Program-made: the position numbers and the translations under genes | The notes under the pieces: model-generated | The model's input: the letters and a program-made list of their open reading frames with translations, nothing else | Told to the model about the DNA's origin: nothing | Databases searched by the model: none | Part shown: in pieces, positions 184-6,327 of the stretch | Layout of the letters: every line of letters begins with the position of its first letter | Position numbering within the stretch: the first letter of the stretch is position 1 | DNA from: DASVDK01 sp036562265 [NCBI: Thermodesulfobacteriota bacterium] | GTDB taxonomy: Bacteria; DASVDK01 | DNA: 6,757 bases | Reading direction: 5' to 3' | Assembly: GCA_036562265.1 (NCBI GenBank) | Contig: DATCKS010000424.1 | Coordinates: 1-6,757, forward strand

Positions 184-201
184 ACGACGCACGCTGCTCT
201 C

Positions 202-225
202 CCAACTCGGTCCGAACCGAGTTGG
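202..225. repeat. Perfect hairpin, 10-bp stem and 4-nt loop
   Basis: The left arm CCAACTCGGT (202-211) and right arm ACCGAGTTGG (216-225) pair perfectly around the loop CCGA. A second pair of arms, GCTCTC at 196-201 and GAGAGC at 235-240, can extend the helix on the outside with a 9-nt bulge on the right (226-234). No T-tract follows on either strand. It may be a stable transcript-end structure, a protein-binding palindrome or part of a small RNA; the sequence does not decide. Confidence 0.6.
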
Positions 226-409: not shown

Positions 410-504
410 GTCAGGCCCCCGACGTGTGGCCGCCCGGAAAACGGACAGGCCTGACCCCATGGAAAATGGAAAGGCCTGACACCAAGAAGGCCGCCCGTCA
501 GGCC
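410..504. repeat. REP-like cluster of GGCCTGAC/GTCAGGCC motifs
   Basis: The 8-mer GGCCTGAC or its complement GTCAGGCC occurs four times in 95 bp: GTCAGGCC at 410-417 and 497-504, GGCCTGAC at 448-455 and 473-480. The two inner copies belong to a 20-bp direct repeat spaced exactly 25 bp apart (436-455 and 461-480), identical at 18 of 20 positions; the second copy reads GGAAAATGGAAAGGCCTGAC. Inner and outer copies form two opposed stem-loops. The copy at 497-504 includes the azlD stop codon. Short intergenic palindromes built on GTCAGGCC with an AT-rich neighbour resemble the REP elements that accompany Y1 (IS200-like/RAYT) transposases; this assignment is from memory. It could also end or stabilise the azl transcript. 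Confidence 0.55.
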
Positions 505-2391: not shown

Positions 2392-3588
2392 TCAGCCCCG
2401 CTTCGGCTCCGGCAGGAAAAAGGCCGCCACGAGGCCGAGGACCGGGGTGAGGGCGGCCGTCCAGAGCGCCGCCGGCAGGCCGAAGCGGTCGGCCACCATG
2501 CCGAGCACCCACGCGCCGATGCCCCCCGCGCCGATCGCCAGGCCGACGATCAGTCCCGAGGCCATGCCGTGGTGGCGCGGCAGGTAGGCCTGCGCGAGGA
2601 CCACCGAGGTGGTGAAGGTGGCCACCAGGACGAAGCCGAGGCCGGCCAGGAGCGCGAAGTGCACCCAGATCGGCATCGAGCGGGTGGCGAGGAGGAAGAG
2701 GACGGCCAGCGGCGTGCCGAGGACGAACGCGCTGATCATGAAGCGCCGCGCGCCGATCCGGTCGGCGAGGACGCCGCCGACGAGCGTGCCGACGGCGCCG
2801 GCGCCGAGGAAGACCGAGAGGAGCGGCCCGGTGAGCCGCGGATCGGCCCCGAGGACGTCCCGGTAGTAGAAGGGGATGTAGGTCGTGAAGCCGAGCTGCG
2901 ACCAGGAGCGGAACATGACCACGACGACGAGCAGCACCATGGCGCCGACCAGCGTCGGCGCGACGCCACCCGCCGCGGCCCGCTTCGCCGCGGTCTGCCG
3001 CGCCAGGTAGGGCTGCACGGCGAAGAGCAGGGCGGCGACGAGGAGCGGGTGCACCGCCATGCCGAGCGAGCCGGCCGCCCCGAAGCGCGCCAGGTACAGC
3101 GCGATCAGGGCCGGCCCGACGGCGATGCCGATGTTGCCGCCGACCGAGAACCAGGAGATCCCCGTGGCCTTGTAGTCGCCGGCCACGCTGGCCGCGGTCT
3201 TGTACCCCTCGGGGTGGTAGGCCGCGATGCCGACGCCGGCGACGACCGTCAGGGCGAGGACCGTCCAGTAGGACGGGGCGAGCCCGATCAGGGCGAACCC
3301 GACGCCGGCCAGGAACACCGCCCAGGGGAGCAGCCACCTCCGGGCGCTCCGGTCCGAGAGGTAGCCGAAGGCCGGCTGGATGACCGACGAGGTCAGGTTC
3401 GAGATGAGGATGATCGCCCCGGCCGCCTCGTACGACAGGCCGTGCACGTCGCGGAGCGTCGGCAGGATGGCCGGAAAGGCCCCCTGGATGCTGTCGACCG
3501 TGAGGTGGCCCACGGCCAGGAGGCCGAGCATCTTCGCATTGGGCTTGACGCGCTCGCGCGGGAAGGCGGCTTCGGCGACGCTGCTCAC
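2392..3588 (-). CDS. Fsr-type (fosmidomycin resistance-like) MFS exporter
   Basis: This 398-residue major facilitator transporter has about twelve membrane segments. It resembles the Fsr family: GHLTVDSIQGAFPAILPTLR (27-46) in helix 1, the motif-A-like loop GYLSDRSARRWLLP (75-88), VGIAAYHPEGYKTAA (119-133, the family's FHPE/YHPE motif after helix 4), SWFSVGGNIGIAVGPAL in helix 5, and a second motif-A-like GGVLADRIGARRF in the C-terminal half. Fsr proteins export fosmidomycin and related small anions, but natural substrates are poorly known. The frame stays open far upstream, inside yedA, but that part is Arg/Gly/Pro-rich shadow. I chose GTG at 3588, which overlaps the yedA stop as GTGA and has GAGG eight bases before it; ATG at 3531 is the alternative. 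It probably belongs to the gntR-led operon. Symbol fsr is left out because substrate identity is unproven. Confidence 0.87.
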   Translation of the reverse strand: MSSVAEAAFPRERVKPNAKMLGLLAVGHLTVDSIQGAFPAILPTLRDVHGLSYEAAGAIILISNLTSSVIQPAFGYLSDRSARRWLLPWAVFLAGVGFALIGLAPSYWTVLALTVVAGVGIAAYHPEGYKTAASVAGDYKATGISWFSVGGNIGIAVGPALIALYLARFGAAGSLGMAVHPLLVAALLFAVQPYLARQTAAKRAAAGGVAPTLVGAMVLLVVVVMFRSWSQLGFTTYIPFYYRDVLGADPRLTGPLLSVFLGAGAVGTLVGGVLADRIGARRFMISAFVLGTPLAVLFLLATRSMPIWVHFALLAGLGFVLVATFTTSVVLAQAYLPRHHGMASGLIVGLAIGAGGIGAWVLGMVADRFGLPAALWTAALTPVLGLVAAFFLPEPKRG

Positions 3589-4520
3589 GCTGCGGACCTC
3601 GCGCGGCCGAGGAGCACGAGCGCGACGCCGGCCAGGATGACGACCATCGACACGATGGTCGTCCCGGTGATCCGCTCGCCGGCGACCAGCGCCCCGAGGA
3701 CGACCGCCACGACCGGATTCACGTAGGCGTAGCTCGTGGCCAGGGCGGGCCGCACGCGCCCCAGCAAGTAGATGTAGGCGCTGTAGCCGACGAGCGAGCC
3801 TGCCACGATCAGGTAGACGAAGGCCCAGAGGGCCCGGGCCGACGGCCAGGCCGTCAGCCGCTCGCCCACCGCGAGCCCGAGCAGGACCAGCGCCGCCCCT
3901 CCGACGAGGAGCTGGGCGGCCACCGCCATGAGGCCCGACGGCATCGACAGGTGTCGGCTCCAGGCCGATCCGAAGGCCCAGCATACCGCGGCGAGCAGGA
4001 GGGCGACGGCCCCCGCCGGGTGGGCCCGGAGATCGGCGCCGGTGTTGAGCAGGACCACGCCGGCAAGACCGAGGGCGAGACCGGCCCACTCCACCCGGCT
4101 CGGCCAGCGGCCGAAGAGGCCGGCGAAGAGGCCGGTCCAGATGGGGGTCGTGGCGATCACGACCGCCGCGACCCCGGAGGCGACCCACTGCTCGGCATAG
4201 GCGACGCCGCCGTTGCCCCCGACGAGCAGGAACGTGCCGACGATGCCCGCGCCTCGCCACTCGGCCGCCGTCGGGGCCGGCGCGCCGTGCAGCCGGAGCA
4301 GCGGGTAGAGGAGGGCCCCCGCGATGACGAAGCGGATGCCGCCCATGAGGAAGGGGGGGAAGCCCTCGATCGCCATGGCGATGGCGAGGTAGGTCGAGCC
4401 CCAGATGACGTAGAGCAGCCCGAGCGCCGTGTAGATGCCGGCGCGGCTGCCGGCCCGACCGGACGCCTCGACGGCGGCCGCGGCGTCTTCCCGGGACGCC
4501 GTCCGGCCGGCTACCGACAC
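3585..4520 (-). CDS. yedA: YedA-type drug/metabolite exporter (EamA domains)
   Basis: This 311-residue DMT-superfamily transporter has two EamA repeats and about ten membrane helices. It matches E. coli YedA closely from memory: YVIWGSTYLAI (37-47), PFLMGGIRFVIAGALL in helix 2, GGNGGVAYAEQ (101-111), SGVAAVVIATTPIWTGLF (115-132), GLAGVVLLNTG, CWAFGSAWSRHLSMPSGLMA (180-199) and PALATSYAYVNPVVAVVLG (258-276). YedA-like proteins export small metabolites, amino acids or drugs from the cytoplasm. An upstream extension of the frame to 4820 is Arg-rich and overlaps gntR, so it is rejected. GTG at 4520 is the only sensible start before helix 1. It overlaps the 86-aa gene by 10 bp and has no clear Shine-Dalgarno, so it may depend on reinitiation after that gene. 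The stop overlaps the start of the MFS gene by 4 bp. Confidence 0.9.
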   Translation of the reverse strand: MSVAGRTASREDAAAAVEASGRAGSRAGIYTALGLLYVIWGSTYLAIAMAIEGFPPFLMGGIRFVIAGALLYPLLRLHGAPAPTAAEWRGAGIVGTFLLVGGNGGVAYAEQWVASGVAAVVIATTPIWTGLFAGLFGRWPSRVEWAGLALGLAGVVLLNTGADLRAHPAGAVALLLAAVCWAFGSAWSRHLSMPSGLMAVAAQLLVGGAALVLLGLAVGERLTAWPSARALWAFVYLIVAGSLVGYSAYIYLLGRVRPALATSYAYVNPVVAVVLGALVAGERITGTTIVSMVVILAGVALVLLGRARSAA

Positions 4521-4771
4521 ACGACGCTCAGGAGCGCGACGGCGCCGGCCGCCGCCGCCACGAGGGCCGCGACGTCGATCACGCGCGAGCGATCGGTAGC
4601 GAGGCTCGTCGACAAGACGGGGCGTACCGTGCGCGAGTCCTCGGGGAGGGGCACCGGGACGATGACGTGGAGCCAGGCGTAGCGGCTCGACGCGCCGGCG
4701 GGCGGCTCCTCGTGGGCCGTCGCGAGCCGCGTCCAGGCGCGCCGCGTGAGCGTCGGGGACAGAGAGCTCAT
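4511..4771 (-). CDS. Unrecognised 86-aa protein with one C-terminal membrane helix
   Basis: I do not recognise this protein. It is 86 residues long: a polar, basic N-terminal part (residues 1-30), a stretch WLHVIVPVPLPEDSR (33-47), then a hydrophobic helix of Ala, Val and Leu (about 65-84) ending in Cys-Arg. Basic residues before the helix (TDRSR, 59-63) suggest the N-terminus stays in the cytoplasm with a C-terminal tail anchor. Evidence that it is real: AGGAGGT at 4777-4783 lies five bases before the ATG, the ATG overlaps the gntR stop as ATGA, the stop overlaps the yedA start by 10 bp, and without it there would be an odd 250-bp hole in a packed operon. It could be a small accessory of the YedA-like exporter or serve mainly to couple yedA translation; both are guesses. 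Confidence 0.68.
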   Translation of the reverse strand: MSSLSPTLTRRAWTRLATAHEEPPAGASSRYAWLHVIVPVPLPEDSRTVRPVLSTSLATDRSRVIDVAALVAAAAGAVALLSVVCR

Positions 4772-5766
4772 ACCGCACCTCCTGCGGGGACCAGCTTGCG
4801 TCGCACGAGGTCCGCCGCAAGCTCCTTCACCATCTCGATGCTGCCGCGATCGATCTGCTTCTCGACCAGGATTCGCTGCTGCCCGGGCGCAAGAAGCGGC
4901 TCCACGATCGACTGCGACCCGTCGGCGTAGACGACCACGTCGGCGCCGGCGAGCGCCTGCGGCACCCCCTCGGGCTCGACGATGTGCGCGAAGGCGATCG
5001 GCCGCTCGGGGCCGATGACGTTGCGCAGCGAGGTCACGAGGCCGCGCGCGCAGACGGGGCTCACGCCCACGGCGGCGATGCGCGCCTGCTCGTCGAGGGC
5101 CATGATCCGCATGAGCGTCTGGATCGACGGCCCCATGTACAGGCCGGCCACCTTGATGCCGGTCCCCTCGAGGAGCCCCTCCACCTCGTTCACGTGGAAG
5201 AAGGTCGTGACCGCCAGGTCGACGTCGCCGAGCGCCTGCCGCCCGGCGGCGATGCGCGCCGCCAGCTCCTCGACCGTGGCGATGGAGAGCCGCGCCCCCA
5301 GCTCGGTGGCGAACGCGTCGCGCATGTCGTCGAGGTCGACGGCGTTGCACTCGACGAGGAGCACGTGGGCCTGCGTCGTACCCCCCTCGGGCGCCTGCGC
5401 CACGGCGGTCGCGGCGTCGAGGAACTCTCGGGCCGTGACGCCGAGGGCGCGCACCCTGTCGAACGCCTCGCGCACGGCCGCCATGACCTCCGCGTGGCGG
5501 GCGTCGACCGCCGATCCGATCGACTCCGCGACGAACGTGCCCCGCCCCTGCTCGACCCGCAGGAGACCCTGCGCCTCCAGCTCCCGGTAGGCGATGGCCA
5601 CCGTGTTGTGGTTGATCCGCAGGTAGCCGGCGAGCTGGCGCACCGTCGGAAGCTGCTCCCCGGGCTTGAGCGAGCCGGAGCGGATGAGGCTGCCGAGCTG
5701 CGCCGTGAGCTGCCGATGGATCGAGAACGGGCTACGCTTGTCGATCGCGAGGCCGGGGACGGACAC
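4768..5766 (-). CDS. GntR family regulator with large C-terminal effector domain
   Basis: This is a DNA-binding regulator of 332 residues from the GTG start chosen here. The N-terminal GntR winged helix-turn-helix spans about 14-81: PGEQLPTVRQLAGYL (35-49), the recognition region RINHNTVAIAYRELEAQGLL (50-69) and the wing GRGTFVAE (74-81). A helical linker follows. From about 134 an alternating alpha/beta domain begins with HVLLVECNAVDLDDM and continues with DVDLAVTTFFHVNEVEGLL, a layout like a periplasmic-binding-type ligand pocket (inference). It is not the short tail of YtrA regulators, nor clearly a FadR, HutC or aminotransferase (MocR) domain. The frame extends to a TTG at 5814, but that codon lies inside the palindromic operator and about at the predicted transcription start, with no Shine-Dalgarno. 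GTG at 5766 has AGGAG 11 bases upstream. It heads the exporter series and faces a divergent DUF1285 gene, so autoregulation and control of the exporters are likely. Confidence 0.88.
   Translation of the reverse strand: MSVPGLAIDKRSPFSIHRQLTAQLGSLIRSGSLKPGEQLPTVRQLAGYLRINHNTVAIAYRELEAQGLLRVEQGRGTFVAESIGSAVDARHAEVMAAVREAFDRVRALGVTAREFLDAATAVAQAPEGGTTQAHVLLVECNAVDLDDMRDAFATELGARLSIATVEELAARIAAGRQALGDVDLAVTTFFHVNEVEGLLEGTGIKVAGLYMGPSIQTLMRIMALDEQARIAAVGVSPVCARGLVTSLRNVIGPERPIAFAHIVEPEGVPQALAGADVVVYADGSQSIVEPLLAPGQQRILVEKQIDRGSIEMVKELAADLVRRKLVPAGGAV
4777..4783 (-). promoter_or_regulatory. Strong Shine-Dalgarno for the 86-aa gene
   Basis: Read on the minus strand this is AGGAGGT, a full match to the 16S anti-SD, five bases before the ATG at 4771. 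It lies inside the last codons of gntR. It is the best ribosome binding site in the minus-strand series and the main reason to accept the small gene. Confidence 0.75.
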
Positions 5767-5784
5767 GGGTGCCGGGACTCCTGA

Positions 5785-5815
5785 TTGTCTGGTGTCTATA
5801 TCCAAACTGTACAAT
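5785..5815 (+). promoter_or_regulatory. Predicted promoter of the DUF1285 gene
   Basis: TACAAT at 5810-5815 matches the -10 consensus at five of six positions. TTGTCT at 5785-5790 is a partial -35 at a longish 19-bp spacing. Transcription would start near 5822, about 17 bases before GTG 5839. The -10 overlaps the left TGTACA arm of the operator, so a protein bound there should block it. Confidence 0.4.
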
Positions 5816-5826
5816 TACACTGTACA
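5808..5826. promoter_or_regulatory. Probable GntR operator, TGTACA-N7-TGTACA
   Basis: TGTACAATTACACTGTACA has two identical 6-bp palindromic arms 7 bp apart, giving a dyad centred on 5817; it can also be read as ACTGTACA directly repeated every 13 bp (5806-5813 and 5819-5826). An inner dyad TACA-C-TGTA (5816-5824) overlaps it. The site sits in the short AT-rich spacer between the divergent gntR and DUF1285 genes and overlaps promoter-like hexamers in both directions, as expected for autorepression by a dimeric winged-helix protein. Binding is inferred from position. Confidence 0.6.
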
Positions 5827-5845
5827 CTCGAGGTCGGCGTGTCAA
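5819..5845 (-). promoter_or_regulatory. Predicted gntR operon promoter
   Basis: On the minus strand a perfect TTGACA (-35) lies at 5845-5840. Possible -10 hexamers are TACAGT at 5824-5819 (spacer 15) or AGTGTA at 5821-5816 (spacer 18); neither is strong. Transcription would begin near 5805-5812, inside the operator, leaving a leader of about 40 nt before GTG 5766. The -35 overlaps the first codons of the divergent DUF1285 gene. Confidence 0.45.
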
Positions 5846-6327
5846 GTGATTTTCCCGTGAGCCCATTCGGGCCGAAGATCGCCATCGACCCGGACGGCGT
5901 CTGGCTGGTGGACGGCGATCCGGTCGTCCACCCGACCGTCCTGGCCGAGCTGGTCGGGCGCCTCGCCCGCCGGCCGGACGGTACCCACGTCATCCGCGCC
6001 GGCGGCGGCGAGGTCGTCGTCGACGTGGCGGAGGCCCCCTTCGTGGTCCGGACGCTCGAGGTGGAACGGGGGGCGGATGGTCGCATCGCCCGGATCGACG
6101 CGCGGCTCAGCGACGGGACCGAGGAGGCGATCGATCCGAAGACGCTGCGCCGCCTGGCCGCTCCGGCGGGGGGGCCGGACGGTGCCCGCTTCGCCTGCAG
6201 CGTCAAGGGAGGGCGTTTCGAGGCCCGGCTCTCACGCTTCGCCACCTACCATCTCCTCGCCGAGGCGGAGCCCACAGAGGACGGCCGCGCCCGGCTCGAG
6301 ACGTCCAGCGGGACGGTGATCCTCTAG
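5839..6327 (+). CDS. DUF1285 family protein
   Basis: This is a 162-residue soluble, probably cytoplasmic protein of unknown function. It fits the DUF1285 pattern: IAIDPDGVWLVDGDPVVH (14-31), a helix LAELVGRLARRPDGTHVI (35-52), the hallmark VVVDVAEAPFVVRTLEV (59-75, usually V-V-D-APFVV), and the closing RFEARLSRFATYHLLAEAE (126-144). Length is normal for the family. There is no signal peptide or membrane segment. The frame opens at 5785, but earlier codons lie in the promoter and operator. GTG at 5839 has GAGG five bases before it (5830-5833); GTG at 5857 is a second option without a Shine-Dalgarno. It is transcribed away from gntR across a shared spacer, so co-regulation with the exporter operon is likely. 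The role of DUF1285 is unknown, and I assign none. Confidence 0.82.
   Translation: MSSDFPVSPFGPKIAIDPDGVWLVDGDPVVHPTVLAELVGRLARRPDGTHVIRAGGGEVVVDVAEAPFVVRTLEVERGADGRIARIDARLSDGTEEAIDPKTLRRLAAPAGGPDGARFACSVKGGRFEARLSRFATYHLLAEAEPTEDGRARLETSSGTVIL

What the first reader, a model, noticed from the sequence alone, without database searches (positions are those of the whole stretch)
5785..5845. Shared operator between divergent gntR and DUF1285 genes
The only strongly AT-rich spacer in the window holds TGTACA-N7-TGTACA. A perfect minus-strand TTGACA flanks it, and a plus-strand TACAAT overlaps one arm. A single bound dimer could switch the exporter operon and the DUF1285 gene together. The motif is not the FadR- or HutC-type operator I know, and not the AGTGTA-N13-TACACT pattern reported for YtrA.
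Basis: partly seen in the sequence, partly recalled or inferred. Interest (0 to 1): 0.6.

Follow-up and report, generated by a model that had tools for sequence, protein, structure and literature searches.

The report
GntR repressor operator shared by divergent genes
A short mirror-image DNA sequence between two genes that point away from each other is most likely the docking site of the repressor encoded next to it, and it looks like a slightly compressed version of a site type already known for one branch of that repressor family.

Summary
The dyad is real: TGTACA (5808-5813), N7, TGTACA (5821-5826), between gntR (start GTG 5766, minus) and a DUF1285-like gene (start GTG 5839, plus). As a bare dyad it is weak: 498 of 5000 shuffled spacers hold some perfect 6-bp dyad with gap 12 or less. 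Its half-site makes it convincing. No orthologous spacer could be found, so I examined other GntR regulators. In short YtrA-type ones with an Nx[NK]T recognition helix (window: NHNT), exact TGTAC-N(10-16)-GTACA lies within 150 bp upstream in 28 of 30 and 9 of 14 (second set); in short ones with other helices 0 of 29 and 0 of 16. The window has TGTAC-N9-GTACA. A TTGACA-like box recurs 12-20 nt upstream of such sites in 21 of 37; the window's lies at 13. So the operator is well supported, but 'not YtrA-like' needs correcting: it is the YtrA half-site (TGTA...TACA) with closer spacing. The protein is not a YtrA-subfamily member: it carries about 250 further residues without a Pfam match, and long GntRs with such helices showed no such site (0 of 7). 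Binding, and control of the DUF1285-like gene, are inferred.

The parts
5808..5826 (.). Operator TGTAC-N9-GTACA (TGTACA-N7-TGTACA), centre 5817; outer A/T pair extends it to 5806-5828
5840..5845 (-). TTGACA, probable -35 box of gntR, 13 nt before the first arm; candidate -10 hexamers inside the operator: TACAGT (5824-5819, 15-nt spacer) or CAGTGT (5822-5817, 17-nt spacer)
   Evidence: position recurs in 21 of 37 operator-bearing regulators; not found by the consensus scan
5810..5815 (+). TACAAT, possible -10 box of the DUF1285-like gene; the only TTGNNN upstream at near spacing is TTGTCT 5785-5790, 19-nt spacer
   Evidence: sequence only
4768..5766 (-). gntR: GntR winged helix plus about 250 residues without a Pfam match; GTG start 5766, AGGAG at 5782-5778
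4511..4771 (-). 86-aa ORF overlapping the gntR stop (ATGA)
   Evidence: no Pfam match
3585..4520 (-). EamA exporter, YedA-like (NF008432 above cut-off)
2392..3588 (-). MFS transporter, start GTG 3588 overlapping the eamA stop
5839..6327 (+). DUF1285-like gene, GTG start 5839, GAGG at 5830-5833

Best explanation
The dyad is the operator of the neighbouring GntR protein. A dimer places one winged helix on each TGTAC half-site. The site covers the probable -10 region and start of the gntR promoter (TTGACA as -35), so binding represses gntR and the exporter genes that overlap it end to end. The same site overlaps the TACAAT of the opposite promoter, so the DUF1285-like gene is probably repressed too, until a ligand of the C-terminal domain releases the protein. 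Shown: sequence, gene layout, and half-site and -35 position shared with other regulators of the same helix class. Inferred: binding, repression, ligand release, control of the DUF1285-like gene.
For: Exact TGTAC-N(10-14)-GTACA upstream of 28 of 30 short regulators with an Nx[NK]T helix against 0 of 29 others; second set drawn with the window's own head as query 9 of 14 (N11, N14, N16) against 0 of 16. The best match to the window's regulator in 299 genomes, L003 (NHNTI helix), has CTGTACT-N8-AGTACAG. TTGACA-like box 12-20 nt upstream in 21 of 37, against 1, 3 and 0 of 37 in the next bins and a shuffled mean of 1.7, maximum 7. Half-sites equal 11 of 12 positions of the YtrA operator. One relative with the same C-terminal domain, L029, has TGTA-N12-TACA.
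Against: No orthologous spacer was seen. The window's N9 is shorter than any exact TGTAC-GTACA site counted (10, 11, 12, 14, 16), though L135 has TGTA-N11-TACA, the same span. Long regulators with Nx[NK]T helices had 0 of 7 such sites, and the window's protein is long. Of 10 relatives with the same C-terminal domain none has an exact TGTAC dyad; L024 has one with a mismatch, inside the upstream gene. Of the 30, 22 are one cluster at 50% identity. L121, the second-best head match, has no such site. The published survey says divergent layout is very rare in YtrA regulons (PMC4494728 section 12).
Confidence: 0.75

Rival explanations
1. The site is the GntR operator but serves gntR and the exporter genes only; the DUF1285-like gene is not regulated through it.
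For: The plus-strand promoter is weak on paper: TACAAT with TTGTCT at 19 nt and no consensus hit. None of 14 DUF1285 loci of about 3.2 kb in sampled Pseudomonadota has a GntR head nearby, so the pairing is not general there.
Against: The site ends 12 nt before the plus-strand start codon and would cover any promoter placed in the 72-bp spacer; published single sites in divergons usually regulate both operons (PMC4494728 abstract).
Confidence: 0.3
2. The dyad belongs to another regulator (for example a MarR-type protein; the stretch TACAATT-A-CACTGTA resembles an OhrR site recalled from memory) and the GntR protein binds elsewhere.
For: The core also reads as a shorter dyad; no binding data exist.
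Against: Half-site class and -35 position match those of GntR regulators with the same helix type; no MarR-type gene was found among the eight window proteins scanned.
Confidence: 0.1
3. Chance dyad in an AT-rich promoter spacer.
For: Some 6-bp dyad with gap 12 or less occurs in 498 of 5000 shuffled spacers.
Against: The half-site pair seen with related regulators occurs in 51 of 20000 spacer shuffles and 2 of 2000 window shuffles.
Confidence: 0.07

Closest known systems
YtrA of Bacillus subtilis and its operator AGTGTA-N13-TACACT (PMC8060467, passage)
   Same: TGTA...TACA half-sites, 11 of 12 hexamer positions equal; YtrA-type winged helix
   Different: Spacing two bases shorter; the window's protein has about 250 residues after the head instead of a short tail; EamA/MFS exporters instead of an ABC transporter; divergent layout
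Short GntR regulators with Nx[NK]T helix in sampled Pseudomonadota (L003, L014, L086, L107, L055 and others)
   Same: TGTAC/GTACA arms, TTGACA-like box 12-20 nt upstream in many
   Different: Spacing N10-N16; base after TGTAC is T or C, not A; short proteins
GntR proteins on Deinococcus, Rhizobium, Neorhizobium, Sulfitobacter and Alloyangia plasmids (alignment A1)
   Same: Winged helix plus a homologous C-terminal domain, 23-29% identity overall; a profile of 8 C-terminal parts built without the window scores it 48.4 bits, best of 2000 shuffles 10.9
   Different: Other recognition helices, other neighbours (peptide ABC transporters, creatininase family), no exact TGTAC dyad upstream

Membership tests
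GntR superfamily | N-terminal GntR winged helix (PF00392) | tested here: met
   59.4 bits, cut-off 27
YtrA subfamily | Winged helix closest to YtrA-type regulators | tested here: met
   Top PDB matches are short GntR proteins 3by6 and 4ham; best genome match is the short regulator L003. MocR heads also match
YtrA subfamily | Reduced C-terminal domain of about 50 residues (PMC4494728, passage) | tested here: not met
   About 250 residues follow the head
YtrA subfamily | Long operator with distant half-sites | tested here: met
   TGTA-N11-TACA by sequence; binding not tested
YtrA subfamily | Usually in an operon with an ABC transporter | tested here: not met
   EamA and MFS transporters follow
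FadR, HutC and MocR subfamilies | FCD, UTRA or aminotransferase C-terminal domain | tested here: not met
   No such domain at E 0.01 for the whole protein or E 10 for the C-terminal 250 residues
DUF1285 (plus-strand gene) | Match to the Pfam model PF06938 | tested here: not met
   No match at E 10
DUF1285 (plus-strand gene) | Homology over most of the protein to DUF1285 members | tested here: met
   hhalign 97%, 140 columns, to 14 DUF1285 proteins; hmmsearch 35.9 bits, best of 2000 shuffles 6.6; PDB 2re3 E 0.0012, which a Pfam-matched DUF1285 protein hits at 1.7e-64

The most novel reading that the evidence does not exclude
The regulator is a separate GntR branch in which a YtrA-type DNA-reading head sits on an undescribed ligand domain, reads an unusually tight TGTAC-N9-GTACA site, and couples an exporter operon to a DUF1285 gene, so that one ligand links export to whatever DUF1285 does.
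Probability: 0.3. Interest if true: 0.45.

Novelty: new variant of a known kind. Interest (0 to 1): 0.3.

Why it matters
It gives a concrete, testable operator for a GntR protein whose C-terminal domain has no Pfam match, and suggests a simple rule: among short YtrA-type regulators sampled here, an Nx[NK]T recognition helix goes with TGTAC/GTACA arms while spacing varies by group. If the DUF1285-like gene is co-regulated, that is a clue to the role of a family without known function. Otherwise it is an ordinary autoregulated divergon.

Tried and rejected
Orthologue search: genome contigs gave one weak locus, a Pseudomonas GntR head; viral contigs none; no genome is held for the window. The full-length family was rare in sampled Pseudomonadota: 1 of 398 genomes at E 1e-25 with profile A1; with the single window protein 1 of 151 relatives of that genome at E 1e-20, the centre genome itself not reaching it.

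Relatives with the same C-terminal domain (10: L023-L029, L031-L033) as a footprint: they carry other dyads upstream, no exact TGTAC pair. L030 is an aminotransferase-type regulator and was dropped. A plasmid search with the C-terminal part alone found nothing at E 1e-3; the profile test is what supports that homology.

Structure prediction without an alignment was poor: GntR mean pLDDT 50.6, DUF1285-like 38.8; no fold search was run. Profile A1 against PDB matched winged helices, with little beyond residue 150.

A first DUF1285 profile was built from wrong reading frames for most loci and discarded; one search replaces it. The direct-repeat reading was rejected because related sites have inverted, non-palindromic arms (TGTACT...AGTACA, TGTACC...GGTACA). 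No Rfam family in the window. Literature: GntR+YtrA+operator+TGTACA gave 0 papers; AGTGTA+TACACT+GntR 3; YtrA/GntR/TGTAC/GTACA (three of four) 205, of which I saw 12 in the listing, none titled as such an operator. The site tables of PMC4494728 are in supplements that could not be read, so the motif may be listed there.

Full report
What is there. The window (73% GC) holds a minus-strand run of gntR, an 86-aa ORF, an EamA exporter and an MFS transporter with overlapping stops and starts, followed on the same strand by an AraC-type gene, azlC and azlD. A DUF1285-like gene points the other way. gntR starts at GTG 5766 (AGGAG at 5782-5778), the DUF1285-like gene at GTG 5839 (GAGG at 5830-5833), leaving 72 bp. 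The two TGTACA copies lie at 5808-5813 and 5821-5826.

Is it more than chance? Alone, a dyad of this size is not: 498 of 5000 shuffles of 5770-5838 hold some perfect 6-bp dyad with gap 12 or less. Two near copies of one self-palindromic hexamer are rarer (30 of 20000), and TGTAC-N(9-14)-GTACA occurs in 51 of 20000 spacer shuffles and 2 of 2000 window shuffles.

The regulator. Pfam finds the GntR winged helix only (residues 19-80). PDB and NCBIfam matches are to that head; short GntR proteins 3by6 and 4ham lead the PDB list. The last 250 residues have no credible Pfam match (best E 9) but are homologous to GntR proteins on Deinococcus, Rhizobium, Neorhizobium, Sulfitobacter and Alloyangia plasmids: 23-29% identity overall (A1), and a profile of eight C-terminal parts built without the window scores the window's part 48.4 bits against 10.9 for the best of 2000 shuffles, although a plain plasmid search with that part found nothing at E 1e-3. 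Ten such relatives have other recognition helices (such as VAPMTV, AHVTV, SPVTV) and no exact TGTAC dyad within 150 bp upstream. L024 has one with a mismatch, inside the gene upstream. L029 has GTGTAT-N10-ATACAC, that is TGTA-N12-TACA.

The key comparison. The best match to the window's regulator in 299 sampled Pseudomonadota genomes was a short regulator, L003, with helix NHNTI against NHNTV in the window. In front of it lies CTGTACT-N8-AGTACAG. This led to a count. Of 103 loci given to the script, 80 passed; the others had no head match, a start too near a locus end, or a duplicate N-terminus. Of the 59 with proteins up to 170 aa, exact TGTAC-N(7-16)-GTACA within 150 bp upstream occurs in 28 of 30 with an Nx[NK]T helix and 0 of 29 without. 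The 30 form 5 clusters at 50% identity, one with 22 members; 4 of 5 contain hits. A second set was then drawn with the window's own head as query: 60 loci, 7 dropped as already counted or duplicate, 53 counted. Short Nx[NK]T 9 of 14; short others 0 of 16; long (over 200 aa) Nx[NK]T 0 of 7; long others 0 of 16. Of the 5 short misses, L133 has the site with one mismatch, L136 with two, L128 has TGTATTATTGTGCTAATACA, and L121 and L127 have nothing convincing; L121 is the second-best head match of the two searches. So the rule holds for short YtrA-type proteins, not for every GntR with that helix, and the window's protein is long.

Spacing. Exact sites had N10 (L003), N11 (L014, L086, L107, L145, L146, L148), N12 (L055, L073), N14 (the 22-member cluster and L123, L124, L130, L134, L144) and N16 (L139). 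The window's N9 is the shortest. More loosely, TGTA-N(9-18)-TACA occurs upstream of 58 of 90 short regulators (shuffled mean 2.5, maximum 7) and 1 of 43 long ones. Many without the Nx[NK]T helix have TGTAT...ATACA, and L135 has TGTA-N11-TACA, the window's span. B. subtilis YtrA, AGTGTA-N13-TACACT (PMC8060467, passage), fits the same pattern. So the window's operator is of YtrA kind with close spacing.

Promoters. The consensus scan found none. In 21 of 37 operator-bearing short regulators a TTGACA-like box (5 of 6 or better) lies 12-20 nt upstream of the first arm, against 1, 3 and 0 of 37 in three further bins and a shuffled mean of 1.7, maximum 7. The window's minus-strand TTGACA lies at 13 nt, L003's TTGACT at 12. 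I read it as the -35 box of gntR with the -10 inside the operator. On the plus strand TACAAT overlaps the left arm and would place the start near 5822, 17 nt before the DUF1285 start codon; this is from sequence alone.

The other gene. The DUF1285 label holds as distant homology: no Pfam match, but PDB 2re3 at E 0.0012 and a 140-column profile match to 14 DUF1285 proteins. None of those 14 loci (about 3.2 kb each) has a GntR head, so the pairing is not general in that sample.

How it most likely works. A dimer on the dyad blocks the gntR-exporter promoter and probably the opposite one; a ligand bound by the C-terminal domain relieves this. [quoted passage not shown] The same paper calls divergent layout very rare for YtrA regulons (section 12), another sign that this is not a plain YtrA. 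Binding, repression, the ligand and the effect on the DUF1285-like gene are inferred.

Papers: PMC4494728 (outline with abstract, passages, sections 12 and 15), PMC8060467 (one passage), PMC6746942 (passages), PMC12772383 (term search without hits).

Noticed in passing
loci L052-L080, L084, L096 (NNKT/NSKT group): A conserved operator TGTACC-N12-GGTACA in front of short GntR regulators, with a TTGACT-like box upstream in many; useful as a regulon seed.
   Followed up: partly
window 4771-5500 (minus), alignment A1: GntR C-terminal domain of about 200 residues without a Pfam match, shared with plasmid-borne GntR proteins beside peptide transporters and creatininase-family genes.
   Followed up: partly
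L023 and L027, upstream of their gntR genes: Dyads AGAATAAT-N3-ATTATTCT and AATGAT-N3-ATCATT at like positions: probably the operator of that Rhizobium branch.
   Followed up: no
window 427-476: Two adjacent 25-nt direct repeats, 76% alike, in the stretch downstream of azlD.
   Followed up: no
window 201-222: Hairpin-like inverted repeat CAACTCGG/CCGAGTTG (read from the sequence).
   Followed up: no
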